Shown: positions 20,519 through 37,926 of the stretch, piece by piece
Layout of the letters: every line of letters begins with the position of its first letter
How positions within the stretch are numbered: the first letter of the stretch is position 1
Assembly (NCBI RefSeq): GCF_005938105.1
Contig: NZ_VCPE01000006.1
Span: forward strand, 186,001 to 250,000
Source of the DNA: Brucella haematophila
GTDB lineage: Bacteria > Pseudomonadota > Alphaproteobacteria > Rhizobiales > Rhizobiaceae
DNA: 64,000 bases
Reading direction: 5' to 3'
Notes under the pieces: model-generated
The model's input: only the letters and a program-made list of their open reading frames with translations
Database searches by the model: none
What the model was told of the DNA's origin: nothing
Made by a program: the position numbers and the translations under genes

Positions 20519-20524
20519 GCCGAT

Positions 20525-21238: not shown

Positions 21239-21335
21239 GCGTCAAGCGACACGGCAAAATTGAAAGCCTTCCGGCCTTTCGGTGAAGTATTCCCCGATCT
21301 TGCCGAAAGCATTGACCGGATGAAACGAGCATAAA

Positions 21336-21358
21336 AAGGCCCGCATAAAGCGGGCCTT
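21336..21358 (-). terminator. terminator of - strand cluster B
   Basis: AAGGCCCGC (21336-21344) pairs with GCGGGCCTT (21350-21358). On the - strand the hairpin is followed by a T-run (A's at 21333-21337). It lies a few bases beyond the stop of the last gene of cluster B. Confidence 0.8.
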
Positions 21359-21362
21359 CCGT

Positions 21363-21791
21363 TTATTGGTCTGTGACCCGTTTCCTAGGAAGCGTGACGA
21401 CATTGCCAGTAGCGGTGACTAGTGGCGCGGTTTGCTTGACCGCATCGTCTACGCGACCGTCTTCTAGCAGTGCTTGCAGAATTTCGACCTCTCGCCCCTT
21501 GGCGTCTGGTTTCGAAATCGCTGCTACGGCTCGCCGAAGCGTTTCACGTTCGGCCATGCACCACGCGTAGACGAAACCGTGACCAGCGCCGCTTTTGAAG
21601 TCCGCAGGATCGCGGGAGACAAATTCGTAAAAATAGTAAGCCGCGCGACTGGCGACGCGATCCATGAACCCCGTTTCCCGCTGAATTTCGGCTTCCGAAG
21701 TTAATCCGGCGTCCATGGCTTTCTGAAATTCATCTAGCGCATGTTGATATATAGTCGGCTGCAACGCCTTGAGGTCATCGACAATCGTCAT
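21363..21791 (-). CDS. small protein after tape measure gene, cluster B
   Basis: This 142-residue protein starts 2 bp after the stop of the tape measure gene, at ATG 21791 (MTIVDDLKAL). It is largely helical with a conserved-looking RETGFMDRVASRAAYYFYEF segment. I do not recognise a family. Cluster A has an unrelated small protein in the same place (31356-31610), so a role tied to the tape measure protein, such as a chaperone, is possible. Confidence 0.6.
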   Translation of the reverse strand: MTIVDDLKALQPTIYQHALDEFQKAMDAGLTSEAEIQRETGFMDRVASRAAYYFYEFVSRDPADFKSGAGHGFVYAWCMAERETLRRAVAAISKPDAKGREVEILQALLEDGRVDDAVKQTAPLVTATGNVVTLPRKRVTDQ

Positions 21792-21793
21792 TG

Positions 21794-24145
21794 CTAATCC
21801 CAATCCGCGTGAATGCCGCGCAGTCCGGTAGCGGTCATATCGTTTAGGTAACGCCCGACTTCTTCGGCAACTTGCCGCAGGTTGTTTCCGACACCGCTGA
21901 TGCTGAACGTGTTGTGATTGGTGACTGTCACCGCGTTTCCGCCCCGACCTGCAAATGCGGGCGCTTGGCCGTTCGGATGGACGTAGCCATTCCGGCTAGG
22001 CGTAATGATTTCCGCACCTTCCTCGCCGACAAGATATGAACTACCGGCGGAGATTGGCCCGCCCTTTGCACGCTTGCCGTCCGGTACGATAGCCCCGCCC
22101 ATGTAGGAAGGCGTATTGACGCCGCCAGAACCATCGGAGCCACCAGTAACGGTATAAGGAAGGCCGCTAGGACCGATAGGCCCGGACAAAGCAGACATAA
22201 GCTTGCCTGCCGCTTCAACGCCTTGACGCAACCAGCCTACAAGTGTGCTGATCTTGTCGATAATGGTTGAAACAGCGCCGCCTACGACGCCGCCGACAGT
22301 TTCACCCCATGACTTCCATTCGGCGTTTGTCGCGCCCAACGGTCCAAGGAGATTACTAATCGAATTGAAGATATCGGTCGAAAACTTCGCGATGGGTTCG
22401 ATGATCGGCTTTACCGGCTCAAGAGCCTTCATGAAGCCTTCGCCGACACCAACGAAGAAGGATTTCAAACCTTCCCAATTGTTGTAGATCAGCGTGCCCT
22501 CCGCCGCGATCCCGGCTAGGACAGCCCCGACGCCGGTAAACATCAGAGCGCCGCGAAGGACTACCGCTGCCCCACGAAGGATAGAGAAGCCACCGCGCAG
22601 GAGATTGAGCGGATTGAGCATCCGAAGAAGGCCGCGACCGGCAACGATACCAGCATCAGCAAGCCGGGCGAATACGCCCGGCGCTTTGCCAGTTGCCGCC
22701 GTAGCGAGCCTTGAACGAAAGGCAAGTGTGCCGAAGTACCCGGAAACCCTTGTTACTGCCTTGCCAAGCGTACCCGATAGTATGCGCCCCGTAAGGCTAC
22801 TTGCCTTCCCGATACTGCCGATGGCAAGGGATGCCACAGATAGCGCACCGCCTTTACCCATCAGGCCAAGGAATTGCAGGCCCGTAAGAGCGATGCGCAT
22901 ACCGATCAGCGATGACGTCACCATTACGATAGAGCGCGTCAGCTTCGGATTGGCTTCGGCGAAGGCGGCGAGCTTGTTCGCCACTTCGGAAACCTTGTCG
23001 GCGATATCGTTTAAGGCTGGAAGAAGAGCGACGCCAAGCGAGGCATTGAGGTTTTCAATGGTCGCGCGAAGGCGATCCGCGAAGCCGCGAGACGTCTTGA
23101 GGCGGCGCTGATAATCTTCTTCAACGACGCCTTGCGCCTTCATCGCTTCGGCGCGGATACGGCGGTACTCCGCGATATTCTGGATAAGAGGACGAAGCGC
23201 CTTTTGAACCTCGCTATCTTGGAAAAGATCGCCGAGCTTGCCGAGATCGCCTTTAAGCGTCCGGTTGGTGATTTCGGCAATGGCTTCAATAGGCGTCATG
23301 CCTTTTGCCGCCGCCTGTTTCATCGACTTCTCAAGGTCAACGCCCATCTTTTTAAAAGCTTTGCGGGTCTGCGGAGCGTTGATCTTTTGAAGGACGTTGC
23401 CAAGATTGGTAGCCGCTTCCGAGCTTTCACCGGCACCTTTGCGGGCAATCTGCAATGCCGCCGCAAGGTCAGCAACAGCGGGAACACCCTTTTGCTGGAG
23501 CGCTCCATATGCAGCGCCGAGCGACGGGAAATACTGCGCCATGTCGCGAAGTTCGAAAGCGCCTTCCTTACCGGCCTGCGCCATGGCGTCGAGCGCCTTG
23601 CCGAAGTCCGTTGCGGGTACTTGAAGATTTGTAAGGGCGGCATAACCCGCATTGGCAAGATCATCGACTTCCGCGCGGTAGGCGGTCGCGGCCCGACCAA
23701 TAGGCTTGAGAAGGCCGAGCGCATCATTTTCATTTGCGCCGAAGCCGACGAGGGTATCCATACCCTGCGCCATCTTCGACGTTGCCTGATTGGTGTCGCG
23801 AGCAACTTGGCGAAGCTGCTTGCCAAGCGCGCCAAGACGCTCTTGCGGAATATTGGCCTTCTGGCCGATATCCTCAAGCTGCGTTTCAAGATTTACCGCT
23901 GCATCATATGGCGCGGAAAGCGCCGCCTTGAGTGTATAAAGTGCGGCACCGGCATCAAACAGGCGACCACGCGCGTTGTCGAGCGCCTTATTGTTACGCT
24001 CAATCGCCGAGTGCAAACGGGACTGCATACCGTTTATGTCGGTCGCAGCCTTCCCAATACCGCGCATGGCGGTCGCCGCTTTTGCCGCTGGCTTGGAAAT
24101 GCCATCGACAAGCCGAACGAGAAGTGAAGATGTAAGATTGGCCAT
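21794..24145 (-). CDS. tape measure protein, cluster B
   Basis: This 783-residue protein has a TP901-type tape measure core (residues about 80-330, including GKALDAMAQAGKEGAFELRD) and hydrophobic segments (about 405-425 and 525-560). The C-terminal region has the SYLVGEEGAEIITPSR motif usual in tape measure proteins. Its first residues (MANLTSSLLVRLVDGISKPA) resemble the tape measure protein of the contractile prophage (MANLTSVLTVRLIDAVAGPA), although the rest differs. No tube, sheath or connector gene accompanies it. It could set the length of a tail built from a helper's parts, or be a relic. Confidence 0.85.
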   Translation of the reverse strand: MANLTSSLLVRLVDGISKPAAKAATAMRGIGKAATDINGMQSRLHSAIERNNKALDNARGRLFDAGAALYTLKAALSAPYDAAVNLETQLEDIGQKANIPQERLGALGKQLRQVARDTNQATSKMAQGMDTLVGFGANENDALGLLKPIGRAATAYRAEVDDLANAGYAALTNLQVPATDFGKALDAMAQAGKEGAFELRDMAQYFPSLGAAYGALQQKGVPAVADLAAALQIARKGAGESSEAATNLGNVLQKINAPQTRKAFKKMGVDLEKSMKQAAAKGMTPIEAIAEITNRTLKGDLGKLGDLFQDSEVQKALRPLIQNIAEYRRIRAEAMKAQGVVEEDYQRRLKTSRGFADRLRATIENLNASLGVALLPALNDIADKVSEVANKLAAFAEANPKLTRSIVMVTSSLIGMRIALTGLQFLGLMGKGGALSVASLAIGSIGKASSLTGRILSGTLGKAVTRVSGYFGTLAFRSRLATAATGKAPGVFARLADAGIVAGRGLLRMLNPLNLLRGGFSILRGAAVVLRGALMFTGVGAVLAGIAAEGTLIYNNWEGLKSFFVGVGEGFMKALEPVKPIIEPIAKFSTDIFNSISNLLGPLGATNAEWKSWGETVGGVVGGAVSTIIDKISTLVGWLRQGVEAAGKLMSALSGPIGPSGLPYTVTGGSDGSGGVNTPSYMGGAIVPDGKRAKGGPISAGSSYLVGEEGAEIITPSRNGYVHPNGQAPAFAGRGGNAVTVTNHNTFSISGVGNNLRQVAEEVGRYLNDMTATGLRGIHADWD

Positions 24146-24190
24146 GTTGGCCCCCTATCAAAGGGGCCGCGCGAATGGCGCGGCCTTATA

Positions 24191-24793
24191 CTAACGATTA
24201 TGTTGCTGGCGTCCCGAACCGAAGCCGGGCGTCGTCGGCGTTGGACGAAGACTGGTATTGGCAATCACGCCGTATTGCGGATACCGCCGCCAGTCCGTTT
24301 CGCCCCAGGCACGGTTTTCGACGTCGTCAATACGGTCATCGGCGCGCTCGCGCGCGATGCAACGGCTGTTGAAGTTGTCAACTTCCGCCTGTGCTTGCAT
24401 GAGCAGTTCGAGAGCTTGGATGATGACTTTCGAGGCTTCCGGGTAGACCTTTGCGAGATTTTTGGCTGCGTCATCTGCCTTTTTTTCGACGGCTGCGCGT
24501 TCGGCTTGAAACGCATCTTCGGCTTCATTCTGTTCCGCCTTGCCAATGCGGGCTGTGATTTCTTCCGAAGCCGCTCGCCCGCGATCAAGAGCGATCCGGG
24601 CCGCGTCGATTTTCTGTTCAGCGGTCTGAATATCGGCGTCCGTTCCCTCAAGAAGAAGCCGCGCCCTTTCACCACGTGCAGCGTCAAGATCGGACTGCAA
24701 CTTAGCTAGGTCGATTTTGGCAAGCGCGGCTTTCAGTGTTTCCGACGTCTGAGCGTCGCCGCCTTTGATGATTTTTTTGATGGTATCAAGCAT
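24191..24793 (-). CDS. coiled-coil protein between capsid and tape measure genes, cluster B
   Basis: This 200-residue protein is strongly helical with coiled-coil character over residues about 15-140 (for example LAKLQSDLDAARGERARLLL and AERAAVEKKADDAAKNLAKV). The last 30 residues are less ordered and end in a basic tail. The ATG at 24793 is chosen over 24838 because GAGGTC lies 6 nt upstream. Its position after the capsid gene and coiled-coil content would fit a scaffold or head-decoration role, but no family is recognised. Confidence 0.55.
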   Translation of the reverse strand: MLDTIKKIIKGGDAQTSETLKAALAKIDLAKLQSDLDAARGERARLLLEGTDADIQTAEQKIDAARIALDRGRAASEEITARIGKAEQNEAEDAFQAERAAVEKKADDAAKNLAKVYPEASKVIIQALELLMQAQAEVDNFNSRCIARERADDRIDDVENRAWGETDWRRYPQYGVIANTSLRPTPTTPGFGSGRQQHNR

Positions 24794-24841
24794 TCTTGAC
24801 CTCATGAATTTGAAGGCCGCGCTCATAGGCGCGGCCATTGA

Positions 24842-25978
24842 TTAACGTCCTGAATTTCTGGAGAAGCCTCGCCAGTCGATGGCTTTCGCACCAATGTCGA
24901 GGCGGCATTTGATTTCTATGCCGTCAACTTCGAAGCCCGTGCGAGTTTCGGTGAAAACGCCTTGCTGGCCGTCGAGATATGCAACTTCGACCAGATCGAC
25001 GGCAGATGGCGAGGCTGAGAAGTAAAAAGCCTTTTCGCTTCCAGCGATACCAAAGCGCTCGATACCCTGATCAAGTCGTGCCTCGGAAATGACCGTGATG
25101 TTGCGGAATGATGGTGGAACCGCGTCTTGTTGGCCTGCCGGATAGAATAGCTCAAGAAAGGTTTCCGCATCCGTCTGCAATGCCTTCGGCACAATAAGAA
25201 AGACAGGCGCGAAATTCAAGAACGTGGCTTCGTCCGTTCCCGTCTGCAACCCCATCCGAAGGAAAGCTTCCGAAAAGCTGGATTTGCTGATCCAGTCCGT
25301 TGCGAGAAGATTTTTATGCTTGGAATGGAACAGGGGAAGCCCGTCGCCCATCGTTGGATTACCGATGATCTGCGCCCAAACCACATCGCTTTCAAGCTGT
25401 GCAGCCTGCACGCCGAAGGCGCGCGGAATGCGGGTGAAAGCCCCGATATCGTCATTGATAATGGTCTGCCGGGTCAGCGATACGATTTTACCGAAAGTCT
25501 CGACGTGGAACCGTTCGGAAGCCTCGCCCATATCGCCGTGCTTAAACTGGCCGTGTTCGCCGACTGCCTCAAGCGTTGGTGCCTCACTAAGCTGCACGCG
25601 GGCCACTTCTTTGAAATCGGGAATATAGCTGACCTTGGAGAGCGGACGGAAGGTCTGCGGAGCGGCTTCGTAACCGGAGCGAAGCGACTTGTTCAGCACG
25701 TTCGTCAAGATAGTCGGGAAGGCATCGGCGGTATGCATTCCGCTACTGCGAACCTGCATAGCTGCCTCGGCAATTTCTTGCCGCGACATGCCTCTTGTAG
25801 AAACACCGCCATTTTCCAGCGTATCGCGCGCCAACTCTACAAGTGAATAACCTACGAAGTCGCGAGCGCCTTCTGTAGTCAGCGGGTGATTTTCAGGATC
25901 GGCGCGATGCAGAAGTGCATTAGTAATTGCCTCTGCCCGGATTGCATCACGGCGTTGTTTGAAATGAGGATCAGGCAT
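24842..25978 (-). CDS. Mu gpT-like major capsid protein, cluster B
   Basis: This 378-residue protein matches the major capsid half of the protease/capsid proteins of Mu-like phages: SEAPTLEAVGEHGQFKHGDM, then GKIVSLTRQTIINDDIGAF, and a C-terminal QQGVFTETRTGFEVDGIEIK plus RLDIGAKAIDWRGF. In many relatives a ClpP-like protease is fused at the N-terminus; here it is absent and only the capsid part is encoded. An M41-like metalloprotease gene lies 11 bp upstream. The protein should form the head shell (HK97 fold, by family). Confidence 0.82.
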   Translation of the reverse strand: MPDPHFKQRRDAIRAEAITNALLHRADPENHPLTTEGARDFVGYSLVELARDTLENGGVSTRGMSRQEIAEAAMQVRSSGMHTADAFPTILTNVLNKSLRSGYEAAPQTFRPLSKVSYIPDFKEVARVQLSEAPTLEAVGEHGQFKHGDMGEASERFHVETFGKIVSLTRQTIINDDIGAFTRIPRAFGVQAAQLESDVVWAQIIGNPTMGDGLPLFHSKHKNLLATDWISKSSFSEAFLRMGLQTGTDEATFLNFAPVFLIVPKALQTDAETFLELFYPAGQQDAVPPSFRNITVISEARLDQGIERFGIAGSEKAFYFSASPSAVDLVEVAYLDGQQGVFTETRTGFEVDGIEIKCRLDIGAKAIDWRGFSRNSGR

Positions 25979-25989
25979 CGAATATCTTT

Positions 25990-26649
25990 CTAAATCTCCA
26001 ACGCAGCCGGTCCGGCTGCGCGAATAATTTCGTGAGCGGTTTCCCCATCCAGAACACCTTTTTCCATTAAGGCAGATGCAAGTGCGGAAACCGCGATTTG
26101 GGTTTTGGGATTTTCGAGGAAAGCAATCACGCGCCGCTCAATGCGGCGAATGATGCGGAATACATCGCGGTCAGACGCCTGCGCTCCACCAGCGGCAATC
26201 AATGCGTCGAATGCAGCGGCGCAACTATCACAGGCCCCGAAACGACAAGAACGGATACGCCGCATGGTAGTTCGAATTTCTACAACGCCCGTTCCGGGCT
26301 TGACGCCTGCAAGCAAATCATCCGCGATTGGACCCGCGACCGCCAACGCGACGCGCTTGGCGGCGTCGTCGGAGGGGCGGACATATGAGATTAGCGCGGG
26401 AACGTCGATGCTTACTGAGGCAATCGATACCCCAAGGACGTGGGCCGTAACCGCGTGGCTGGCTTCGTGGCGAGCAACGCCGATTTCGCGCTGCCACGTT
26501 ATAGAAGTCGACAACGGAACGTCGAGAACATCGCCGCGACCAATTGGCGGCTCATTAACAGCCTCGACCCATGCGCCTAGTGCGAGGTTACTCGCGCAAC
26601 ACTTGCGATAAATGAAGCTAACTTCGGGCGATCTTTGTGGTGTTCTCAC
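25990..26649 (-). CDS. M41-like HEASH metalloprotease next to the capsid gene
   Basis: This 219-residue protein has a zinc-protease motif HEASH (H61, E62, H65) in VARHEASHAVTAHVLG, which resembles the FtsH/M41 peptidase signature HEAGHA. It lacks the AAA ATPase part of FtsH. A Cys-rich segment (RSCRFGACDSCAAAF) follows at about 130-145. The rest is helical. The start is a GTG; no better in-frame start was seen. It sits 11 bp upstream of the capsid gene, where Mu-like phages have the prohead protease, so it may do maturation proteolysis with an unrelated fold. A distant-FtsH regulatory role is an alternative. Confidence 0.6.
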   Translation of the reverse strand: MRTPQRSPEVSFIYRKCCASNLALGAWVEAVNEPPIGRGDVLDVPLSTSITWQREIGVARHEASHAVTAHVLGVSIASVSIDVPALISYVRPSDDAAKRVALAVAGPIADDLLAGVKPGTGVVEIRTTMRRIRSCRFGACDSCAAAFDALIAAGGAQASDRDVFRIIRRIERRVIAFLENPKTQIAVSALASALMEKGVLDGETAHEIIRAAGPAALEI

Positions 26650-26794
26650 TGCGCATAAACCTCAAACAAAACGGAGATTACAAAATCGGAAATACGCTCG
26701 AAAACCGGGGCCGTGTTGCCCGCGCCCTTCCGGGGGCCGCAAAAGATCGTTTTGCAGGGGGGCGTGTAATGGCGGGCGAAGTGGCGCTGGAAAG

Positions 26795-27736
26795 TCATCC
26801 GCAAGACCTCGCCAGAATGTCGGGCGAAGCCGAGTGCGAAGAGCTAACGGCAAGCTGCTGCGAAGCAACGATGGTTGCAACGCCATCAATGATGACAATG
26901 GACCGGATTGTAGAGAGATTGAAATCAGGCCGAAGAACGTTCGGCTCTATCGCCGCAGCGACGGTCTTATCAATCTGCGCGATATTATCGGCGGGACGGC
27001 TTTGAAGCCGTCCGCCTTCGGCGCGCTTCTTGCGGAAATAGGTAGCGCGGCTAATGCCGAGGACGATCCAAGGCTGAGACTGATTGAGACTACCCGATGT
27101 TACACTTTTCGCTTCCTCCTTATTATATACGGAAACAAGAGTGTAACCGGGAGTAGTCTCACCGTTTTCGACCTTTAGCTTTCCGGTCTTTATCCACCGA
27201 TGGACAGTCATGCGCGTTACGCCGAGTTCCTTGGCGATACTTGTAACGGTGACCTTCTTCCGAGCCTTGCGCGCTACTTCACGCGCCGCCGCGCGCTCCG
27301 CGCGGCGGGCGTAACGCTGTTCCTGCGTTTCACCGCGAGCGCCGAGAAGCCAAAGTTGATGTTTTTCGCGCTGTTCTGGCGTAATATTGAGGCGTTCGCC
27401 GGTTTCTTCGACCGTCATTAGACCGCGCTCTTCCAGCCATTCATTATAGGTATGGTCGGTCAATTCCCGGTCGGCGTCGGGGAAATAGCGCTTGCAAAGA
27501 GCTTCAAACTTATCGCGAGCGTTGACGCCGTTACGGCAGCGTGAAATGTAGATGCAAGCATTAGCGAGGATTTCGATAGCGCCTTTCTGGTCTTTCTCGC
27601 TGCAAACCAGACCGGCCTTGAAAGCTCGCATGAAGAGCATCAATCGCACATCAGCGTCACCGCCTTTTGGCGATGGCGCTTTCTGTTTGTCGTCACGAAC
27701 GATTTCATCGTCCATGTGATCCATGAACGTTTTCAA
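26795..27736 (-). CDS. helix-turn-helix regulator or early protein, cluster B
   Basis: This 313-residue protein has a central helix-turn-helix (SIAKELGVTRMTVHRWIKTGKL, about 165-190) and a second helical repeat with ISRATYFRKKRAEGG (about 230-245). The N-terminal third is mostly helical. It overlaps the preceding gene by 4 bp (ATGA), so the two are translationally coupled. Its place at the head of cluster B suggests control of the capsid and tape measure genes. It is not clearly a repressor or activator and could also be a replication factor. Confidence 0.6.
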   Translation of the reverse strand: MKTFMDHMDDEIVRDDKQKAPSPKGGDADVRLMLFMRAFKAGLVCSEKDQKGAIEILANACIYISRCRNGVNARDKFEALCKRYFPDADRELTDHTYNEWLEERGLMTVEETGERLNITPEQREKHQLWLLGARGETQEQRYARRAERAAAREVARKARKKVTVTSIAKELGVTRMTVHRWIKTGKLKVENGETTPGYTLVSVYNKEEAKSVTSGSLNQSQPWIVLGISRATYFRKKRAEGGRLQSRPADNIAQIDKTVAAAIEPNVLRPDFNLSTIRSIVIIDGVATIVASQQLAVSSSHSASPDILARSCG

Positions 27737-28026
27737 CGGTTCGCTCCCGTGGCTTCGTGAAAATGGTTCCAGAAGTTAATGCGTGCATCGGGATCATAGA
27801 TCGTAATAGCCGCGATCTGTTCGATACGGCGGCGGATATAAGCCATGGCCTCATCAGCATAACGGTTGGCTTCGGTATGATCCGCGCCCATGCCTAACCC
27901 TTCCGCTAGCAGATACCCACGAACAGAAGCATAGGTGTACGGCTTCACCTGCGCGAAGAGCCGCACCGCTTGCTTATCCAGTTCTTCACGCTTGCGGTGA
28001 GTGGCAGGAATAAGACGAACGGTCAT
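27733..28026 (-). CDS. small hypothetical protein at start of cluster B
   Basis: This 97-residue protein begins at ATG 28026 (MTVRLIPATHRKREELDK), overlapping the next gene by ATGA. It is basic at the N-terminus and helical. I do not recognise a family. It is the first gene of cluster B, so it may be an early regulator or transcription partner of the HTH gene. Confidence 0.5.
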   Translation of the reverse strand: MTVRLIPATHRKREELDKQAVRLFAQVKPYTYASVRGYLLAEGLGMGADHTEANRYADEAMAYIRRRIEQIAAITIYDPDARINFWNHFHEATGANR

Positions 28027-28630
28027 GCCGCACCCCCGTAACGGCGCGGAGCGTCCGGCATCGTGCAAACTGCGCGTGCGGTAAGGAAATTAGGCTCGGA
28101 CGTAGGCATGTGCGTTCCCTGACGAACAACTTGATTGTTTCTAAGTCCATCAAACAGGGGCACTGGTCGGCCTTGCGCATTAAGATAGCAACAAGCCGAT
28201 TAAAGTCAATAAAAATGACCGAATAACCACTGGAACCATACTGAGGTTCAAGTTAATGTATAAATAATCTCCAATATATTACTTCGAAAACAAGCAATAA
28301 AATGGATCTATAAACACATTTTAAAACGTCCTTCAATAACATAACTCAAATGATGCTGATATTTTTCCAAAAAGCTTGCCGCCGACACTCCGAAATTGGG
28401 TTGAAATTGTTGGCGAGAAATACGGTTCGTTAACGGCTCAAATTGCAGCAAAAGAAGGCGCGGCAATATTGCTTGGGAAATGGCGTCTACAAACAGCCCT
28501 TTGACGTTAAGAATATCGCACGCAATAGATGTGAATTTGATCGCACCACAACTGGACTACCAAAACGCGGATACGCTAAAGCTCAGCTTGCGGAGTGAAC
28601 GTCACTCACTGCAAAATTAGGGGGTATAAA
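28027..28630. other. AT-rich intergenic region with possible decayed gene
   Basis: This 600-bp stretch separates the divergent cluster B and yccF genes. Bases 28200-28340 are very AT-rich and probably hold cluster B promoters. From about 28378 to 28600 the + strand reads, with a stop and a frame change, LPPTLRNWVEIVGEKYG and later GLPKRGYAKAQLAE. This looks like a worn phage gene of Mor/activator type, but the similarity is weak. No intact ORF or terminator was found. Confidence 0.35.
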
Positions 28631-29104
28631 ATGCGTTTTGCTGGCAATGTTATATGGTTTGTTTTTGGGGGAGCCTTTATCGCGTTCCTTTGGCTGATTG
28701 GCGCAGTTTTGTTTGCGATCAGTATAATTGGTCTGCCGATTTCCCGTGCGGCTATTGAAATGGCTAAAATGTCGGCTTTTCCATTTGGAAAAGACGTCGT
28801 GCATGTACGTGAGCTAGACGCTAAAAAGCTATCTGCAACGACGGCGGCAACAGGTACGATTGGGTTCATCGCCAACATTATTTGGGCCTGCACGTTTGGG
28901 ATCGTGCTATTCTTAACCTATCTGGTGGCAGGAGTATTCAACTGCATGACGATCATCGGCATCCCGTTCGGCCTTCAATCGTTCAAACTGGCAGGAATTT
29001 CGTTTTGGCCGGTTGGTCGTCGGGTTGTTCCTTCCGAACTGGCCCAAGTCGCGCGTCAGCGGAATGCGGAAGCCAAGCTCGATAAAATTCGCGGACTGGC
29101 TTAA
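28631..29104 (+). CDS. yccF: YccF family inner-membrane protein
   Basis: This 157-residue protein is a YccF (DUF307) member with two repeated halves, each with membrane segments: about 5-35 (IWFVFGGAFIAFLWLIGAVL and the ISIIGLPISRA motif) and about 80-120 (IIWACTFGIVLFLTYLVAG with CMTIIGIPFG). The paired IGLP/IGIP motifs after the membrane segments are diagnostic. GGGGG lies 7 nt upstream of the ATG at 28631. It sits alone between two phage-derived clusters, divergent from cluster B, and is probably cargo. Its biochemical role is unknown. Confidence 0.85.
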   Translation: MRFAGNVIWFVFGGAFIAFLWLIGAVLFAISIIGLPISRAAIEMAKMSAFPFGKDVVHVRELDAKKLSATTAATGTIGFIANIIWACTFGIVLFLTYLVAGVFNCMTIIGIPFGLQSFKLAGISFWPVGRRVVPSELAQVARQRNAEAKLDKIRGLA

Positions 29105-29198
29105 CCAACACCACACGTCTCCGGCGGCTGGCCCGCCGGAGTAATAATCGTGCCGCAATCGATAAAACGAAGCGGATTTTTCAGGTCTTCTAGACCGT

Positions 29199-30142
29199 TT
29201 ATTTCAAAAGATCGTCTGCCACATCGCGGACGGCCTCGTCCCATTCCTGTGTCTTTGCATCCCATGCTTCTTCCGCCACTTTGCGAATTGGCGTTGAAGC
29301 AATGGGGCGTTCCAAACGATCAAAGATATCGTACTGCGCAATCGGCATTAATGCGCCTAATCGCCCTCCTATGTATAGAATTTCACCGGATATCGCTTCG
29401 GTAACACGAGCAATTTCCCGGATAGCAGCCGTAATAGTGTTATTTGTTACTTGCACATGGGCAATCGCTTCACGGTTTTGCGCGTTTGCTGCATGCGCTA
29501 CATGTACGTGGCTCCATTCCGCTACATCCATTGCTCGGCTATTGAGCAACCAACGTTCAACCGTTGCAATCAGCGTTTTCGGAAGAACATCGTGCCTTTT
29601 ACGGTCGGTCGGAGAAATACCAGCAAGGCGATCAAAGTGGCGATGCAATCTCTCCGATGTTCCGTACGCCAGGGGCCGGTCGTATCCACCCATATAGCGC
29701 CTTCCGGCTTCTTATCCTTCCAAAACTCTCGTGCCGCTGCTTCATAGTCATAGGGCAACCCGTCGAAACAAACGAAATTCTCGCGGGTCAATAACTGCCA
29801 ATTAGCTTTGAGGTCAGTAATCAATCGAGGCAGGGAAATAACGTCCTTACGACGATCAATAAGGCGTCGGAGTGCCATGACCTGCATCGTGACATGTCCA
29901 CTGACGAGTGTTTCTCCGATAAGCGTGGTATGCAGTGGCCCTGTCGGATTTTCGAGAGCCAGTTTACTAATGGCTGCAAAATTTGTGTCTCTCCAGACAA
30001 GAGTATGGATGACGTTCCAGATGGCGTGATCTGGATCATCGTCAAGCCATGTACTCCATTGTTCCCGCTTTTGACGGAACGTTTGCAACGAAACTCTGTC
30101 GGTCACATCGCAGTCGCGAATGTCGTAGATGTATTTGCCCAT
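29199..30142 (-). pseudogene. hypothetical gene interrupted by a frameshift
   Basis: Two overlapping - strand frames encode what looks like one protein of about 313 residues. The first frame (from ATG 30142) gives MGKYIYDIRDCDVTDRVSL and continues through WVDTTGPWRT, then becomes nonsense. The second frame (to stop 29199) resumes with SERLHRHFDRLAGISPTDRK. The switch lies near 29670. It could be an inactivated gene or a sequencing error. I do not recognise the family; the product is helical and without membrane segments. It is cargo between clusters A and B. Confidence 0.5.
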
Positions 30143-30323
30143 ACCGAGAACATGCTCAAAGCATGTTGCAATAACAAGTGGATTTGAATGCTCTTCGACC
30201 TCCGCACTGCTTTCGCCTTGATCGCTTCGATATCGACAGCCGGGCCGGATTTTGGGGCCTTGGCTTTGGCTGCAAGCTCGGTATTCCGAGCCGCCAGCGC
30301 TTCCGCGCCTTCCTGCGCCGCTT

Positions 30324-30559
30324 TCACGTCTGCCTCAAGGCTTCTACGACGTCGGGGGCGAGCCGGAGCGTGACCGCTTTTTCGGGGCTTTCTTGCCGGG
30401 GCCTCGCGTGCGCCGAACCGCCTCCGCGAACGTCGTGCGCTGCGTGGCCTGTTCATCCGTCAATTCCGGCGCGTCGGGGTTAGAGGCGATTTCCCTTTGA
30501 ATTTCCGCTTCCTCCGCATCTGTCAGCGGTCGGATCGCCTTTCGCTTATTGTTCGTCAT
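30324..30559 (-). pseudogene. brnA: brnA antitoxin remnant, frameshifted
   Basis: From ATG 30559 the frame encodes a BrnA-type N-terminus (PLTDAEEAEIQREIASNPD, then APELTDEQATQRTTFAEA). In BrnA a ribbon-helix-helix domain should follow. It is present but in another frame at 30324-30383: KAVTLRLAPDVVEALRQT, and it is then cut by a stop. So the antitoxin lost its DNA-binding end by a frameshift near 30385 and truncation. An overlapping - strand frame (30103-30456) fuses the tail to unrelated sequence. The toxin-like frame upstream overlaps by 14 bp, as in intact brnTA operons. Confidence 0.6.
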
Positions 30560-30788
30560 ATAACTTCCTTTCCTTCCGGCTGGCGCGGCGCATAGAAATT
30601 ACCGAAAGCGCCTCAGTTCCAAGTAGGACGAAAATCGTCGCTATAACCGTCTCACCCCGGAACTCACCGACCGCCATCAAGCGGCCTTGCTTTGCGGGGT
30701 AAATCGCCGCGTTGTCAAAAAATTCTGTGGTCAGGTCGGCAAAGTCGAAACCAACGCGAACGTCGATTTCAGACCAGCCGAGAATTTC
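30546..30788 (-). pseudogene. brnT: brnT toxin remnant
   Basis: The frame ending at 30546 encodes VGFDFADLTTEFFDNAAIYP, MAVGEFRGETVIATIF, and ALSVISMRRASRKERKLYDE, which match the body and C-terminus of BrnT RNase toxins. The N-terminal 15 or so residues are altered and no ATG, GTG or TTG start is available at the expected place; the first in-frame ATG is in the middle. The module is therefore probably inactive. A terminator hairpin lies directly upstream, so a rearrangement seems to have removed the start. Confidence 0.6.
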
Positions 30789-30802
30789 AGCGCAGGCGCA
30801 TG

Positions 30803-30826
30803 AAAAAGGCCGCTAAACGCGGCCTT
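30803..30826 (-). terminator. terminator downstream of cluster A
   Basis: AAGGCCGC (30806-30813) pairs with GCGGCCTT (30819-30826), with a T-run on the - strand (A's at 30803-30807). It resembles the cluster B terminator at 21336-21358 in sequence and orientation. Confidence 0.7.
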
Positions 30827-31355
30827 CTGTAAATCTTGCGGGCGTATGCCTGTAACTCGGTGGGAAAATCTTCCAACCGTGCCTTCCAGACGTCGGCGAA
30901 AAAGCAATCAAATCAATAATTTCGCTGCGGCTAACGTTATTGCGACGGACCTCCGCTACCATCGTCTCCTTCCAGCATATCGAACCTAAGTTTCGGGCAC
31001 GCGTTACTGCTGTCGCCATCTGTAAAGCATTTTGCGGTGTAGCGTGACGCTCGTTTTGAGATTTTTGACGTTGGTTTTTACAGCAACCGTTTTTTGTGCA
31101 TCGGTTTAAAAGGTCTCTAAAAGACCATTTACGTAATCTTTAAATCGCATCTGGCGGAAGCCACTTTTAGCCTGCCGGATAAATTCGCCAAAGAGAGCGC
31201 AACCAATCCGACATGGGCCGTTATTCAGTCTCTCAAATCCACGACAGGTTGTATCAATAATAATGCGGCGGCGGCTTCCCGTACATAAAGCCGCCGCCGC
31301 CAGTCGCGCTTTTCCCATCGCGCTATCAGCAAAAGAGCCGGAGCAATCTCCTTTG
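30827..31355. other. degraded region downstream of cluster A
   Basis: No convincing gene is present. A - strand frame (30813-31019) and another with RLEDFPTELQAYARKIY read as pieces of phage proteins but are short and in different frames, so the stretch looks like worn phage DNA. It ends at the cluster A small-protein stop. A long + strand frame here is a shadow. Confidence 0.4.
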
Positions 31356-31610
31356 CTAATTCCTGTTATCCACCTCGAAGATGTGCCGTTCCATAGCAAG
31401 CTGGATAATGTCCTGAAGGAAGGCGTTCCGCGCATCGAGCCATTGAGCGTATGCGTCCCGCTGTTCCGCGGTAAGATTGCTCGTGTCGCGGAACGCCCGC
31501 ACCAGTGTTTTATCACTGGCGCTGATGCCGTTCAGAACCTCGGTATAGAAGCCTATCAACTCAGGAACAGTGACCGGTTGGTCTTTCACGTTCTCAGATG
31601 CCGCCATCAT
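31356..31610 (-). CDS. small protein after tape measure gene, cluster A
   Basis: This 84-residue acidic, helical protein starts at ATG 31610, sharing a base with the tape measure stop (TAATG), so it is translationally coupled. It includes PELIGFYTEVLNGISASDK and RNAFLQDIIQLAMERHIF. No family is recognised. It occupies the same position as the unrelated small protein at 21363-21791 in cluster B, suggesting a tape-measure-associated role. Confidence 0.6.
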   Translation of the reverse strand: MMAASENVKDQPVTVPELIGFYTEVLNGISASDKTLVRAFRDTSNLTAEQRDAYAQWLDARNAFLQDIIQLAMERHIFEVDNRN

Positions 31611-33913
31611 TATTCAGTTCCTCCATGCAGCGCGCCCGCTCTGCCGCTGCTGATGGATTGCCCGATGCGTCCAAGCACCTTGTTTGCCACTGCTTTAGGA
31701 TCGGCAGCACCGTTAATGACAAAGCTATTGTTTATGGTCTGCTGTGGTGGTCGCTTATCGACAATCTCCGCACTTATCGTCTGCCGCAACTGATCGTCGC
31801 CCAGCGTGACGATATTGCCGTTTGTAAGGACGGAAGACAGGCTATCCGGGCCGCTATAAGGCTTCGGCACATAGGGCGTGACGGCGTCCGGCGTAAGCGC
31901 TCCCTTGATCGTCTCTGCGCCTTTACCGGCAAGCCCCATCAAATAGGTCAACCATGCTGGAGGCTCAGGCCAATTGATCTTCATATCGAAGGTAAACAGG
32001 GATTTCAGTTCTTCGATTTTCTGTGTGAACCAATCCCGTATCTTCTGCCACGATGCCGACAGGCCCGCCGCCAACTGGTCGATCCAGTCACCGGCAAGAT
32101 TATAGAATTGCTGCCCTTTGGCTTTGCCCCAAGCGGCAAGCGCCTCGGCAGGGATGACGCCTTGTTCAAGCCCCATCATGGCATTGGCCTGGTCTTTCAC
32201 GCCCTGCCACATCTGCCCGAACCAGCTTTTCTCTACGTCCTGTTCAAACTTCTGCCAGCGCTCGGCATTCTTGCGCAATTGTTCAAGGCGTTCTTCCGGG
32301 GTGCGTCCGAGATCGTCAAGTATCTGGAAGCCCATGGACAGCATCCACGAACCGGCCATGACGCGGCGAAGCGCGGTCGCCATCGTGCGAGCACGTCCTT
32401 GCGTAGAAATTATCTGGCGAGCAGCTTGAGCGGCCCCTGAAGCAATCCCACGCAGCCCGGCTGCAACTATACGAGCGGAAGCGGCGAACAGCCCGAACAC
32501 CCTTCGCGCTCCCTCTGCACCAAGACGCATGAGAAGCCAACCCTTGGCGACATTGCGTCCAGCGCTGTTGAACTTGAGGAAGAAGCCCAACAGCGGTAAG
32601 AGGCCAACCCGCATTCCGGCAAAGGCAAAACCAAGTACCTTTCCAGCAATCGAAAGCCCCATCAAAGCCGCAACGGTTGAAACGATTTTCTTGACAAGGC
32701 CGGGATTTGCGTCGGCAAAGGCGGAGAACCGATCAATAACACCGCCCACGCTTTCGGCCAACTCAACCAGTGTCGGCAACAGCTTGTCACCAATGATGAT
32801 AGCACCGCGATTGAGCTTATTGACCAGCAACTCCCATTTTTTGACTGCGCCCTCTGCCTGTTTGGCGGCTTCCTCGGTCGCTGATCCGGCATAGTCGCTT
32901 TGATTGGCGACCAGTTGCAGAGCCTTTGCCAGAAGCTGCGGGTTGTCGATCAGCTTGGCGAAATCCTTGAAATAGTCCTGACCGACGATATCCTTGAGCG
33001 CGGCCTTGCCTTCGTCGCCCTTTTCCGCCAGTGTTTCGAAGAATTTCAGAAGCGCCGTTGGACCTTCATTCTGGATATCATCCAGAAGTTTCTCTCGCGA
33101 AACCCCCATGCTTTCAAATGCGGCGTCGATTTTCTTGCCACCCGCCAGAACGCGGGTGGAGAAGGCAACCATACCACGCGCCGCCGTTTCGGGAACGGAA
33201 CCGGCTGCAACCATTGCTGTACCGATAGCAGCCATCTGGACGGCGGATAACTTCAGCGTACCCGCAGCGGCATTCGCCCGATTGGTAAAATCAGTGATTT
33301 CGTTGGCCTTTGCGGCCATATTGTTCGATAGATGGTTTGTGGCATCGCCAAGGTCCTCAATGCCTTCCTGATTGAGCTTGTAGACGTTGCGAAGCTTGGC
33401 GAACCGTTCCCCGATCTCCTGACCTGCCATATCGAAGGCGACAGCAGCTTTCGCCACATAGGTCGAGAACGCTTCGAGTTCCTCTTGCGGAACGCCGCCC
33501 TGCGCGGCTTCCGACATAAGTTCAAGAATGTCCTTTGCGGCGACCGGGATAAGAGCGCTCGTGTCCAGTGCGAATTTGCGCAACTGTTGGACACGTTCGA
33601 CCGGCAAATCATTGAGGACTTTCTCAAGTCCCTTCATGGACTGGTCAAACTGCGCTGCCTTGATGACCGGCGCGCCGATAGCAAGCGCCTGACCGAATGC
33701 ACCGAGGAGCTTGCTGCGCGCCTGTGTCAGCTTTGCTTCTGCATTCTTTGTCGCTTGTTCAAGGTTTTCAATCTGGAAGCCGTCCTTAATGGCACCGGAG
33801 AAGCCGTCTCCGAACTTCTTTATGCCTGCGCCGATGTTTTCCAGCGATCCCCGCACTTTCTGTGCAGGGCCGGTGAATTGGTCAACAAGCCGGATCAGAA
33901 GCGAAACATCCAT
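31610..33913 (-). CDS. tape measure protein, cluster A
   Basis: This 767-residue protein has a TP901-type core (residues about 75-330, with FAKLRNVYKLNQEGIEDLGD and GTAMVAAGSVPETAARGMVA). Hydrophobic segments are at about 400-425 (VSTVAALMGLSIAGKVLGFA) and 430-445, and the C-terminal region is typical of Mu-like tape measures (QQTINNSFVINGAADPKAVA). It is the third tape measure gene of the window and differs from the other two beyond the first 30 residues. It lies 60 bp after the capsid gene without intervening tail genes. Confidence 0.85.
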   Translation of the reverse strand: MDVSLLIRLVDQFTGPAQKVRGSLENIGAGIKKFGDGFSGAIKDGFQIENLEQATKNAEAKLTQARSKLLGAFGQALAIGAPVIKAAQFDQSMKGLEKVLNDLPVERVQQLRKFALDTSALIPVAAKDILELMSEAAQGGVPQEELEAFSTYVAKAAVAFDMAGQEIGERFAKLRNVYKLNQEGIEDLGDATNHLSNNMAAKANEITDFTNRANAAAGTLKLSAVQMAAIGTAMVAAGSVPETAARGMVAFSTRVLAGGKKIDAAFESMGVSREKLLDDIQNEGPTALLKFFETLAEKGDEGKAALKDIVGQDYFKDFAKLIDNPQLLAKALQLVANQSDYAGSATEEAAKQAEGAVKKWELLVNKLNRGAIIIGDKLLPTLVELAESVGGVIDRFSAFADANPGLVKKIVSTVAALMGLSIAGKVLGFAFAGMRVGLLPLLGFFLKFNSAGRNVAKGWLLMRLGAEGARRVFGLFAASARIVAAGLRGIASGAAQAARQIISTQGRARTMATALRRVMAGSWMLSMGFQILDDLGRTPEERLEQLRKNAERWQKFEQDVEKSWFGQMWQGVKDQANAMMGLEQGVIPAEALAAWGKAKGQQFYNLAGDWIDQLAAGLSASWQKIRDWFTQKIEELKSLFTFDMKINWPEPPAWLTYLMGLAGKGAETIKGALTPDAVTPYVPKPYSGPDSLSSVLTNGNIVTLGDDQLRQTISAEIVDKRPPQQTINNSFVINGAADPKAVANKVLGRIGQSISSGRAGALHGGTE

Positions 33914-33973
33914 GGCGGTATCCGATCAATGAGAAAAGAGGAAGCGCCGCCCGCAATTCCGGGCGACAAGCCG

Positions 33974-34939
33974 TTAGATGACGTTCTGGATGATGCAGCC
34001 GAGCGACTTGGCGCAAACGACTTCTTCCACCATTTCACCGACGCGGATGCGAGCGCCGCCTTTCAGGCCGACTTCCGGCGCGGGAACTGAACCGGCAATC
34101 CGGGTTTCATATTCCGCCGTAAAGCCCCACGTCAGAATATTGTCTTCCGGCGATGCCTTGGAGGTATCGACATAAAGCAACTGGATGGAGTTGCCCCACA
34201 CCTTCACCAGATTGACCGGCTGGCCCTTGGCGGCTGCGTTCTCCATGGAAATGCCGATAAGCAGCCGCTTCGGATCGATCTCCAAGAGTTCAGCAAACTG
34301 TTCGCGGCTGATTGCGCCGTCTTCCGTCAAGCCACCTTTCGCAGCCTTGATCAGACGCGGGTGGCGCTTGATGACCTCCCAGACCTCCTGCCCCATCGAC
34401 ACCGTGTTTGCCCGGTAAACAAGCGGCTTGTTCATCGCGTCGTTAAGCATGGCAAACGGGTCGGATTTCTCGAAGTTGGAGAATTTCTGTTCACCGGAAA
34501 GCTCTATACGCCGTTGCGCATCGTAGTTATCCGGCTTCTGGACGATCCGGGCGGCGCGAACTTCGCGGCCCAGTTCAATCAGGCGGGACAATCCTTCAGT
34601 CGCGGCAGCTTCAGGATCATAGGTGCTGCGTTTGGTTTCCCGCGCCTTTTTCGCCTCGTCTATATCGGTGATGGGAATAACATCATCCAGACCATAATGC
34701 CGAACCGTGCCTTCGTTCGGTTCAGTCGAGAACTCAACCTGATTGACGCGACCTTTGCGGCCTACCTGCAATTCGGGAACAGTAAATGCCTGGGCGATCG
34801 GATAGGTCAGCCATGAAAAGCGTTCGGACATGACCGGAACGGGCGGCAGCACGCCGCTGTGAATCATGCCTGCATTCGGATTTTTATAGCCAATGGCGAT
34901 TGCGGTTAAGGTAGCACTCACTGGAAAGGGGCGGTTCAT
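33974..34939 (-). CDS. phage major capsid protein, cluster A
   Basis: This 321-residue protein resembles major capsid proteins of Mu-like alphaproteobacterial phages: SATLTAIAIGYKNPNAGMIH near the start, then GLDDVIPITDIDEAKKARE, and a middle EQFAELLEIDPKRLLIGIS region followed by WGFTAEYETRIAGSVPAPEV. The length is typical of HK97-fold capsids. It is not closely similar to the cluster B capsid. It follows the gpI-like protease gene by 20 bp. Assignment rests on sequence type and position. Confidence 0.78.
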   Translation of the reverse strand: MNRPFPVSATLTAIAIGYKNPNAGMIHSGVLPPVPVMSERFSWLTYPIAQAFTVPELQVGRKGRVNQVEFSTEPNEGTVRHYGLDDVIPITDIDEAKKARETKRSTYDPEAAATEGLSRLIELGREVRAARIVQKPDNYDAQRRIELSGEQKFSNFEKSDPFAMLNDAMNKPLVYRANTVSMGQEVWEVIKRHPRLIKAAKGGLTEDGAISREQFAELLEIDPKRLLIGISMENAAAKGQPVNLVKVWGNSIQLLYVDTSKASPEDNILTWGFTAEYETRIAGSVPAPEVGLKGGARIRVGEMVEEVVCAKSLGCIIQNVI

Positions 34940-34959
34940 GCGGTTTCTCCTGTTTAAAA

Positions 34960-35520
34960 TCAGTCGGTTTCGGACAAGCTGGACGGATCGGACATAACCG
35001 CTGCCACGGCCTGCGAAATGGTAATTGAGCGGCCCAAAGCCGTCTGTTCGTGCTGATACGCTTGCGCACGGCTGGCAATGGAAAGTCCGATGCGGGCGGC
35101 GTCCTCGTCGCGGTTCGCCATGTCGAGCGGTTCCAGATAAAGCGCTGGACGGTTGACCAGAGCGGCCCCGTTCAGGCCCGTAATCCGGCGTTCTGCGTCA
35201 TGACGGATGCTTGGAGAAAGATAGCGATAGGCTTTCGCGGCAATGAGTTGCGCGGCCCGCTCTGTCCATTCGATATGTCCCCATAGTGAGCCATCGCGTT
35301 CTTCCATGGCGACGATCCAGCCCGCAGCGGGCGCGGGCGTTCCCTTGGGTGCAAGAAGATCCTGCGCATGTTCGTAATCGACCGCCAGCGGACCGGAATT
35401 GGCTCGAAACGCCGCAATGACGGTTGCATGATCGTAAGCCCACGAACGCCCGTCACGCGCATCGATATGCGGCCCGGCTGGCAAAAGTTGCGCCCACTGG
35501 ATGATTGCGCCGCCGCTCAT
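34960..35520 (-). CDS. Mu gpI-like prohead protease, short form, cluster A
   Basis: This 186-residue protein matches the N-terminal protease part of Mu gpI-type proteins: AQLLPAGPHIDARDGRSWAY, then LAVDYEHAQDLLAPKGTPAP, then KAYRYLSPSIRHDAERRITG and LNGAALVNRPAL. Mu gpI is much longer, with a scaffold tail; here the C-terminal scaffold is very short. It should process the head before DNA packaging. Its ATG overlaps the previous gene's stop (ATGA), so expression is coupled to the regulator. Confidence 0.8.
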   Translation of the reverse strand: MSGGAIIQWAQLLPAGPHIDARDGRSWAYDHATVIAAFRANSGPLAVDYEHAQDLLAPKGTPAPAAGWIVAMEERDGSLWGHIEWTERAAQLIAAKAYRYLSPSIRHDAERRITGLNGAALVNRPALYLEPLDMANRDEDAARIGLSIASRAQAYQHEQTALGRSITISQAVAAVMSDPSSLSETD

Positions 35521-36071
35521 TGCACCACCGCCAACGAAACCGGATTATTGCGCCGTTCGACTTCCGCGATAACCGGTTTGATACCGGCAAGCGGAATATG
35601 CAGCTTCGCTGCGATTTCTTCCGCCGACAGACCTTCTCGTAGCATCCGCTGCACGGGGACACCGAGCATCTTGCAGCGCGCCGCTGTAATTCTCTTGCGC
35701 AGCCGATAAACTGTGCGCTCGTGCACACGCAGGGCAACTGCGATCCGCCCAGCCGCATATCCTTCATCCGTCATACGGCTGACGGTGGCGAAAAGTCTCA
35801 CACCTTTTTTATTCTCGCCCATAGGAAGCGTAAGACGTACTCCGCTTTTGCCGGTGCAAAAGTAACTGATGATCGCATCCGCAGCGCTTCTGCCAATCGC
35901 AAGCACAAGCCAATGATCGTCCCCGGCTTTATACGGAATGTAGACGGTGCGCCCACCGTGTTCCCGGCACAGTTTGAGGGCCTGATCCTCACCTATGAGT
36001 TCTTCAAGGATCTCGAAAATGGTGAGGCCGTCAAAATCATCAAAGCGATCTGAATTGTCGATTTTGCTCAC
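35517..36071 (-). CDS. Mor/C-type transcription regulator with HTH, cluster A
   Basis: This 184-residue protein has a Mor-like N-terminus (FEILEELIGEDQALKLCREH followed by GGRTVYIP) and C-terminal helix-turn-helix segments (YAAGRIAVALRVHERTVYRL and LSAEEIAAKLHIPLAGIK). The GTG at 36071 is preferred over an upstream TTG at 36104 because GGACGG lies 7 nt before it. Mor proteins activate the middle/late promoter of Mu. It overlaps the protease gene by ATGA, so it heads the cluster A operon. Palindromic sites at 36117-36147 lie just upstream and could be its own operator or that of a repressor. Confidence 0.68.
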   Translation of the reverse strand: MSKIDNSDRFDDFDGLTIFEILEELIGEDQALKLCREHGGRTVYIPYKAGDDHWLVLAIGRSAADAIISYFCTGKSGVRLTLPMGENKKGVRLFATVSRMTDEGYAAGRIAVALRVHERTVYRLRKRITAARCKMLGVPVQRMLREGLSAEEIAAKLHIPLAGIKPVIAEVERRNNPVSLAVVQ

Positions 36072-36116
36072 TACTAACCGTCCGCCTGTTTTGGATAGGC
36101 GCAACAGTAGAATATC

Positions 36117-37907: not shown

Positions 37908-37926
37908 AGTTTTATAGCGCCATATA

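What the first reader, a model, noticed from the sequence alone, without database searches (positions are those of the whole stretch)
21363..36071. Two tandem minimal clusters encoding protease, capsid and tape measure only
Two - strand clusters share the order regulator, protease, major capsid, tape measure, small protein: 28026-21363 and 36071-31356. The genes are intact, closely spaced or overlapping, and end near similar terminators (21336, 30806). Both lack terminase, portal, connector, tube and sheath. The two capsids, the two proteases (M41-like and gpI-like) and the small proteins are unrelated, so one cluster is not a copy of the other. Both keep the two size-setting virion parts, head shell and tail ruler. 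That suggests satellite-type elements that build their own head and tail length on a helper's tail parts. Two prophages that lost the same internal genes is the conservative alternative.
Basis: partly seen in the sequence, partly recalled or inferred. Interest (0 to 1): 0.92.

Follow-up and report, generated by a model that had tools for sequence, protein, structure and literature searches.

The report
Jumping phage satellite with own capsid
The second gene cluster is a small jumping DNA element that moves like phage Mu, carries capsid genes but no packaging or transposition genes, and has close relatives elsewhere, so it probably hitch-hikes on full-size phages; the first cluster belongs to a separate, less certain mobile element next door.

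Summary

Cluster 2 is an 8,499-bp Mu-type transposon (31038-39536): TG...CA ends, 5-bp duplication TGCGG, and an empty site in two related genomes. Both ends match those of a full-size Mu-like prophage. Searches found no transposase, terminase, portal or tail-tube genes in it. A second delimited element (7,290 bp, contig L081, duplication ACGGA) shares eight genes with it. A third relative (Mesorhizobium, L137) has MuA- and MuB-like genes, but its right end is not on the contig. The three capsids form one clade (100/100), and all three proteases are short, with the scaffold part deleted. The late operon carries the palindrome that precedes the full-size phages' late operons. Best reading: a transposing phage satellite. 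Packaging by a helper is inferred, not shown.

Cluster 1 lies in a 17.4-kb element (13505-30961) between 12-bp tRNA-end repeats, with its own serine integrase and a candidate defence pair. It is satellite-like, but its capsid module was found nowhere else; a defective phage is not excluded.

The "tail ruler" idea is weak: L081's tape measure is internally deleted, and none is seen in L137.

The parts
31038..39536 (.). Element C: 8,499-bp Mu-type element holding cluster 2
   Evidence: Empty site in G323 and G301; TG...CA ends and TGCGG duplication
31033..31037 (.). Target-site duplication TGCGG, right-end side
39537..39541 (.). Target-site duplication TGCGG, left-end side
39283..39536 (.). Mu-type left end of element C
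   Evidence: 67% identical over 256 aligned columns to the left end of the G303 prophage, E 9e-13
31038..31080 (.). Mu-type right end of element C
   Evidence: 86% over 44 columns to the right end of the G303 prophage, E 3e-7
38890..39114 (+). o74, small left-end gene shared with L081
   Evidence: 53% identity, E 2e-18; no hit in POA1180
38022..38750 (+). 242-aa divergent gene; among the loci fetched only L081 shares it
   Evidence: 25% over 229 aa; terminator-like hairpin 38773-38804
37716..37907 (-). 63-aa repressor-like protein
   Evidence: phrog_4738 E 1.2e-4
36380..37726 (-). ParB-like protein, 448 aa
   Evidence: PF02195; 41% to POA1180 ParB; 35% to L081
36185..36246 (-). Conserved DNA site shared with POA1180, G303, L081 and L137; central gyrase-type site proposed, untested
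   Evidence: blastn E 2e-16, 4e-5, 3e-13 and 2e-9
36134..36148 (.). Palindrome CCTGACAGTGTCAGG, proposed late operator; a second copy with one mismatch at 36116-36130
35517..36104 (-). Mor-like late activator
   Evidence: phrog_836 E 1e-18; 39% to POA1180 gp51
34960..35520 (-). gpI-type protease with internal deletion of the scaffold part
   Evidence: PF10123; alignment; lengths
33974..34939 (-). Major capsid protein (phrog_1005)
   Evidence: tree
31610..33913 (-). Tape measure protein, 74% identical to POA1180 over full length
   Evidence: dN/dS about 0.15 against G303
31356..31610 (-). Small 84-aa protein with two tandem homologous stretches in one L081 protein
   Evidence: E 3e-7 and 2e-4; 0 of 1000 shuffles
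13505..30961 (.). Element B: 17.4-kb integrative element holding cluster 1, between two 12-bp copies of a tRNA-Met 3' end
   Evidence: G329 carries the neighbouring prophage without B, ending at the same core
13425..15101 (-). Large serine integrase of element B (3' end crosses the core)
   Evidence: PF00239/PF07508; 50% to the integrase of prophage A
18752..20197 (.). Candidate two-gene defence cassette PDC-M19A/B
   Evidence: PADLOC E 4e-30 and 9e-60; no match in the two G308 contigs read
26795..27736 (-). HTH regulator of cluster 1
   Evidence: PF13384; 1 of 297 genomes has it, the own one
25990..26649 (-). 219-aa protein with HEASH motif (metalloprotease-like, unproven)
   Evidence: sequence
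24842..25978 (-). Major capsid protein without the fused protease domain of its relatives
   Evidence: phrog_4523 positions 290-643 only; RcDormio fusion protein
24191..24838 (-). 215-aa protein of unknown family
21794..24145 (-). Tape measure protein of cluster 1
   Evidence: 49-50% to tape measures in G307 and G299
21363..21803 (-). 146-aa protein of unknown family, weak hint of a tail protein
1..13504 (.). Right part of prophage A in the same tRNA site, possible helper; gene names by eye, not scanned for completeness
   Evidence: tape measure homology

Best explanation
Cluster 2 is the structural module of a non-autonomous Mu-type transposable element that lives as a satellite of full-size Mu-like (POA1180-type) phages. 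Shown: it has Mu-type ends and a 5-bp target duplication, shares both ends with a full-size prophage, has no MuA/MuB, terminase, portal or tail-tube gene that our queries find, and recurs with most of its gene order in an independent insertion. Inferred steps: an infecting or induced helper supplies MuA/MuB, which act on the shared ends and a central site; the helper's and the element's Mor activators bind the shared palindrome and switch on protease-capsid(-tape measure); helper portal and terminase use a packaging site assumed to lie in the shared left end; the element's own capsid with a shortened scaffold makes smaller or helper-excluding heads. Cluster 1 is the structural module of a separate 17.4-kb integrative element next to a prophage in the same tRNA site; it is probably satellite-like as well, with lower confidence.
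For: Empty sites in G323 and G301 and the TGCGG duplication. Ends match the G303 prophage (39,986 bp, duplication TTGCG; terminase, portal, sheath, baseplate and transposase hits). L081 element delimited, duplication ACGGA, with o74, 242, ParB, Mor, protease, capsid, tape-measure ends and small84 in common. L137 with transposase, AAA protein in the MuB place, Mor, short protease and capsid. Capsid clade 100/100, 0 of 500 shuffles as low. Of 79 rows, 55 show a protease: the 3 clade members have 186-195 aa, the other 52 have 254-391 aa. Exact palindrome 3 times in POA1180, 3 in G303, once in C and once in L081; none within 2 mismatches in the 37,968 bp of the window outside both elements. dN/dS 0.11 (capsid C-L137) and 0.19 (protease C-L081) between clade members. 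The own genome has no POA1180-type transposase; 4 of 35 genus genomes match, 2 of them closely. Element B boundaries.
Against: Only three members: one genome, one metagenome contig and one contig-end locus. Family search 23 of 394 genomes with matches (G586 among them is the L137 record again; nine hit regions fetched and checked), class search 17 of 385 (judged by score only, regions not read), order search 18 of 297: no further clade member seen. L137's palindrome has two mismatches. L081's capsid frame is interrupted and its tape measure is reduced to the first 82 residues plus a short tail, so that copy may be decaying. No particle, excision or transfer data. For cluster 1: HTH regulator in the own genome only, 1 of 297, none in viral contigs; the 237-aa neighbour occurs in 4 of 297 genomes, without other B genes in the two further regions read; G308 holds a broken relative.
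Confidence: 0.68

Rival explanations
1. Cluster 2 is a deletion derivative (natural mini-Mu) of a Mu-like prophage, and cluster 1 a decayed prophage; the structural genes are leftovers without function.
For: The tape measure is still 74% identical to POA1180; L261 (G694) shows that such remnants exist (only transposase and capsid fragments were hit); broken capsid frame in L081; degenerate relative of cluster 1 in G308.
Against: Three loci share one short protease and one capsid clade; C and L081 share 242, o74 and small84; among loci fetched no other shows 242, and POA1180 shows no o74; genes are kept down to 25% identity, with low dN/dS between members (dS about 2 and so rough).
Confidence: 0.2
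2. The elements are anti-phage cassettes on transposons: altered capsid, protease and tape-measure proteins are made when Mor of an incoming phage appears and poison its assembly; self-transfer by particles is minor or absent.
For: The shared palindrome would couple expression to the helper; internally deleted scaffold and tape measure could act as dominant-negative forms; assembly-blocking defences are known (Tab, PMC10884400; Tai, PMC11364771; abstracts seen); defence-type genes lie in element B and beside the L137 capsid.
Against: The protease keeps its N-terminal protease domain and C-terminal tail, and the capsid is full length with low dN/dS; retained transposition ends point to mobility.
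Confidence: 0.25
3. Clusters 1 and 2 are parts of one composite element or of the neighbouring prophage A.
For: They lie side by side: 76 bp separate the core of B from element C.
Against: Separate boundaries: prophage A ends at the core at 13505, as in G329; B ends at 30961; C has its own duplication and empty site.
Confidence: 0.03

Closest known systems
Transposable phages of the POA1180 / B3 type
   Same: Ends, 5-bp duplication, Mor, ParB, gpI-type protease, capsid, tape measure, late palindrome
   Different: Element C is 8.5 kb, not about 40 kb, and shows no transposase, lysin, terminase, portal, tube, sheath or baseplate gene
Capsid-forming PICIs (cfPICI)
   Same: A satellite that carries its own capsid gene and needs helper tails (named in passages of PMC11389934; details recalled)
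   Different: No integrase, no packaging genes of its own, Mu-type transposition
SaPIbov5 Ccm
   Same: A satellite-encoded homologue of the helper capsid protein that changes head form (abstract of PMC8569155)
   Different: SaPIs are Staphylococcus elements that insert by an integrase (recalled); here a protease with shortened scaffold goes with the capsid
Laboratory mini-Mu and MITE-like non-autonomous transposons
   Same: Reduced element that can be mobilised by transposase in trans (mini-Mu passages of PMC10052514; MITEs in PMC11389934)
   Different: Element C is natural, recurrent and keeps a regulated structural operon
P4-like satellites and PICMI
   Same: Small elements dependent on a helper phage (PMC11389934 passages; PMC10803314 abstract start in listing)
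   Different: Other replication and insertion genes (recalled); PICMIs carry no capsid-remodelling genes (listing)

Membership tests
Mu-type transposable element | TG...CA ends with 5-bp target duplication and a matching empty site | tested here: met
   (C); ends and duplication also in L081
Mu-type transposable element | Ends shared with a full-size phage of the family | tested here: met
   left 254 bp at 67%, right 43 bp at 86% against G303
Complete (autonomous) Mu-like phage | MuA and MuB genes | tested here: not met
   none found in C or L081 with POA1180 queries; present in L137
Complete (autonomous) Mu-like phage | Terminase, portal, tail and lysis genes | tested here: not met
   apart from the tape measure
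Phage satellite (general) | Recurrent small element with its own conserved gene set | tested here: met
   C and L081, eight shared genes; L137 in part
Phage satellite (general) | Induced by and packaged with a helper | not testable with these tools
   only shared ends and shared palindrome
cfPICI / PICI | Integrase with att sites | tested here: not met
   C moves by transposition and shows no integrase
cfPICI / PICI | Own capsid plus own packaging module (cfPICI) | tested here: not met
   no terminase or portal hit in C
cfPICI-like satellite (element B) | Integrase with att repeats, 10-20 kb | tested here: met
cfPICI-like satellite (element B) | Recurrent conserved gene set | tested here: inconclusive
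   HTH313 in the own genome only, 1 of 297; degenerate relative in G308; 237-aa relatives in G549 and G373 stand without other B genes
Gene transfer agent | Particle genes packaging random host DNA, no mobile ends | tested here: not met
   mobile ends and missing particle genes; definition recalled

The most novel reading that the evidence does not exclude
A so far undescribed family of phage satellites that spread by Mu-type transposition: they borrow a helper's transposase, portal, terminase and tail, are switched on through the helper's late-activator site, and bring their own capsid protein and a protease with shortened scaffold to build heads that fit the small element and compete with the helper.
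Probability: 0.5. Interest if true: 0.88.

Novelty: new variant of a known kind. Interest (0 to 1): 0.76.

Why it matters
The satellite families named in the review passages that I read (P4-like, PICI, cfPICI, PLE, PICMI, VEIMEs, tycheposons, soil ones; PMC11389934) do not include satellites of transposable phages; that most known ones insert by integrases is recalled. In my searches no listed title or abstract start describes such an element; the listed papers were not read, and only open-access papers are held. A satellite that copies itself by transposition raises direct questions: how a headful-packaging transposable phage is made to pack an 8-kb element, whether a shortened scaffold changes head size, and how satellites arise from phages, since both kinds of capsid can be placed in one tree.

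Tried and rejected
Single design for both clusters: rejected, boundaries and protein families differ. Mu-type ends around cluster 1: a scan for TGT...ACA with 5-bp duplication between 15200-21340 and 27900-30960 gave 0 candidates. Defence genes as cargo of the L081 element: the methyltransferase and nuclease-type genes lie outside its right end at 7377; my early notes had linked them. AbiU2-like match of 29570-30142 (E 0.0045, below cut-off; no PADLOC match): not used. Structures of the 242-aa protein (pLDDT 56.5) and the 219-aa protein (39.9): too poor, no fold search made. Viral-contig scans: ParB no relative; capsid alignments gave L081 alone and 8 loci, of which L274-L277 show terminase and portal and L278-L280 (25-26%) were not examined. 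242-aa protein against plasmids: no match. ORF 36040-36273, first taken for a gene: its matches are to a conserved DNA site. L168 (254-aa protease, only the gp06 homologue hit) might be another reduced locus; not examined.


Full report
Setting. The window is G000:C52:186001-250000 of a 5.5-Mb genome in 55 contigs.

Cluster 2 is a transposon. Against genome G323, window 30950-31037 and 39537 onward are contiguous with a 5-bp overlap; G301 shows the same empty site, with a 3-bp overlap of the alignments. The stretch between is 31038-39536, 8,499 bp. It starts TGTAGCG and ends AACAACA, and TGCGG stands on both sides. This is the signature of Mu-type insertion. The left end (254 bp, 67%) and right end (43 bp, 86%) match the two ends of a 39,986-bp Mu-like prophage in G303, which is itself flanked by TTGCG and has hits for terminase, portal, head, baseplate, sheath, tape measure and transposase. 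G326 carries a further Mu-like prophage with POA1180-type transposase (76-77%); its candidate ends, found with one and two mismatches to the end patterns, are flanked by CCAAC.

Gene content of the transposon, from the left end: o74, a divergent 242-aa protein, a 63-aa repressor-like protein, ParB, Mor, short protease, capsid, tape measure and an 84-aa protein. Identities to POA1180 are 74% (tape measure), 57% (capsid), 56% (protease, 131 aa), 41% (ParB) and 39% (Mor). Of 35 POA1180 queries (of 58 proteins), only these five hit it, besides weak hits of tnpB43 (E 0.48) and hyp48 (E 0.10).

Recurrence. A scan of viral contigs with the capsid gave one relative, L081, 68%. Its element lies at 88-7377, 7,290 bp, with inverted ends and the duplication ACGGA. 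It shares the 242-aa protein (25%), ParB (35%), Mor (41%), protease (57%) and capsid (68%), o74 (53%, E 2e-18) and the 84-aa protein (E 3e-7, 0 of 1000 shuffles). Its tape measure is reduced to about the first 82 residues and a short tail and stands before the protease, and its capsid frame is interrupted. A scan of genome contigs gave 48 loci; the best, L137 in Mesorhizobium xinjiangense, has 71% capsid identity. It has a CI-type repressor (PF07022), a transposase (phrog_310; no Pfam match), an AAA protein in the MuB place, Mor, a short protease and the capsid, then a SIR2-STAND gene that runs to the contig end. Genes beyond the contig end are unknown; but Mor is followed directly by the protease, whereas POA1180 has terminase, portal and a head gene directly before its protease.

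The minimal loci are one lineage. Of 79 rows examined (several are one record under two names, such as L110/L163, L138/L258 and L164/L265), 55 show a protease: the three minimal loci have 186, 193 and 195 aa, the other 52 have 254 to 391 aa. In the alignment of window, L081 and POA1180 the middle (scaffold) part is missing while N-terminus and a C-terminal tail remain. Sixteen rows lack hits to both terL and portal; four lack every head and baseplate hit: the three and L261, a visible fragment; the other twelve keep at least one such gene, several being contig ends or distant relatives that POA1180 queries may miss. In a tree of 71 capsids the three form one clade with support 100/100. Eight rows were dropped by hand: L118, L119, L159, L180, L182, L184 and L261 as fragments or odd frames, and L166, which was nearly full length. 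The L081 row ends in its interrupted frame and has a long branch. dN/dS (NG86) is 0.15 for the tape measure against G303, 0.11 for capsid C-L137, 0.19 for protease C-L081 and 0.23 for protease C-L137; dS is above 1 throughout, and capsid C-POA1180 was saturated.

Control signals. The palindrome CCTGACANTGTCAGG stands before the protease, sheath and lysin genes of POA1180 (5409, 19463, 38971; genes) and occurs three times in the G303 prophage; C has one exact copy and one with a mismatch, about 30 and 12 bp before Mor, L081 one exact copy, L137 one with two mismatches. Element B has none within three mismatches; the 37,968 bp of the window outside both elements have none within two and two with three. 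A second conserved site of about 62 bp lies upstream of Mor in C, L081 and L137, and between gp04 and the protease in POA1180, in opposite orientation; G303 has it too. In phage Mu the strong gyrase site lies near genes G and I at the centre of the genome (passages of PMC10052514), so I propose, without test, that this is its counterpart.

Cluster 1 is in another element. L195 (G323) shows that G000 carries a 73.6-kb insertion at a tRNA-Met gene whose 3' end, CCTCCGCTACCA, is the core. Copies of the core stand at C52:143352, window 13505 and window 30950. Each of the two stretches so made begins with a serine integrase (50% identical to each other). In G329 the two ends of the first stretch, prophage A, are found without B, and the right end stops at the same core; the middle was not read. 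So element B is window 13505-30961, 17.4 kb. It holds the integrase, a candidate defence pair PDC-M19A/B, a 237-aa protein and cluster 1. Its capsid relatives are protease-capsid fusions (RcDormio 45%), of which B keeps the capsid part. Its tape measure is closest to those in G307 and G299 (49-50%), not to that of prophage A (25%). In G308 a broken relative carries the 237-aa and 173-aa proteins, no match to the M19 stretch in the two contigs read, and a truncated tape measure next to an insertion sequence (the insertion-sequence reading is by eye and recall). The capsid-module regulator was found in 1 of 297 family genomes, the own one; the 237-aa protein in 4 of 297, with no other B gene nearby in G549 and G373.

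Mechanism, with status. Shown: transposon structure, shared ends, shared palindrome, recurrent minimal gene set, low dN/dS. Inferred: mobilisation by helper MuA/MuB, activation by helper Mor, packaging through the shared left end, altered head by the shortened scaffold. A capsid homologue carried by a satellite is known to change head form (SaPIbov5 Ccm, PMC8569155, abstract). A pure assembly-poison role is the main functional rival (PMC10884400, PMC11364771, abstracts) and may act together with transfer.

Literature. POA1180 is described as a 41,655-bp myovirus with two transposase genes; a word search of that paper found no 'Mu-like' (PMC5492332, passages). Searches for satellites of transposable phages listed no report of one (listings only, open-access papers only).

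Noticed in passing
L104 (POA1180) 27283-28445: The Mu-type right end (27283) and left end (28445) of POA1180 enclose nearly all of the reported chromate genes (27279-27945), so these may be packaged or flanking host DNA and not phage genes; a second inverted right-end copy stands at 28037 and no 5-bp duplication was seen.
   Followed up: partly
L281 (NZ_CP104987, 8,955 bp) and similar plasmids listed: Plasmids of about 9 kb in Proteus, E. coli and Salmonella match the tape measure; the Proteus one, which I examined, also has a DUF5906 primase-type protein, like a P4-type satellite with its own tail ruler.
   Followed up: partly
L283 (NZ_CP034307, 10,073 bp) 7758-8681: A 10-kb Vibrio plasmid carries a Mu-type capsid gene (phrog_1005) with ParA and a recombinase; no terminase or portal is named among its ten listed genes, a list that may be incomplete.
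   Followed up: partly
L137 11191-13188: A SIR2-STAND gene (SIR2_2, nSTAND3) follows the capsid gene of the Mesorhizobium element and runs to the contig end.
   Followed up: partly
L307-L309, G326:C12:396227-433404: A Mu-like prophage with POA1180-type transposase and a different head module, candidate ends flanked by CCAAC, lies about 1 kb from the host region that matches window 41636 onward.
   Followed up: partly
window 18752-20197: Candidate defence pair PDC-M19A/B sits between two genes that are kept in G308, where the pair has no match in the contigs read, as in a cargo hotspot.
   Followed up: partly
window 42793-45333: Large autotransporter-like ORF (846 aa, by eye) in host DNA right of the elements.
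   Followed up: no
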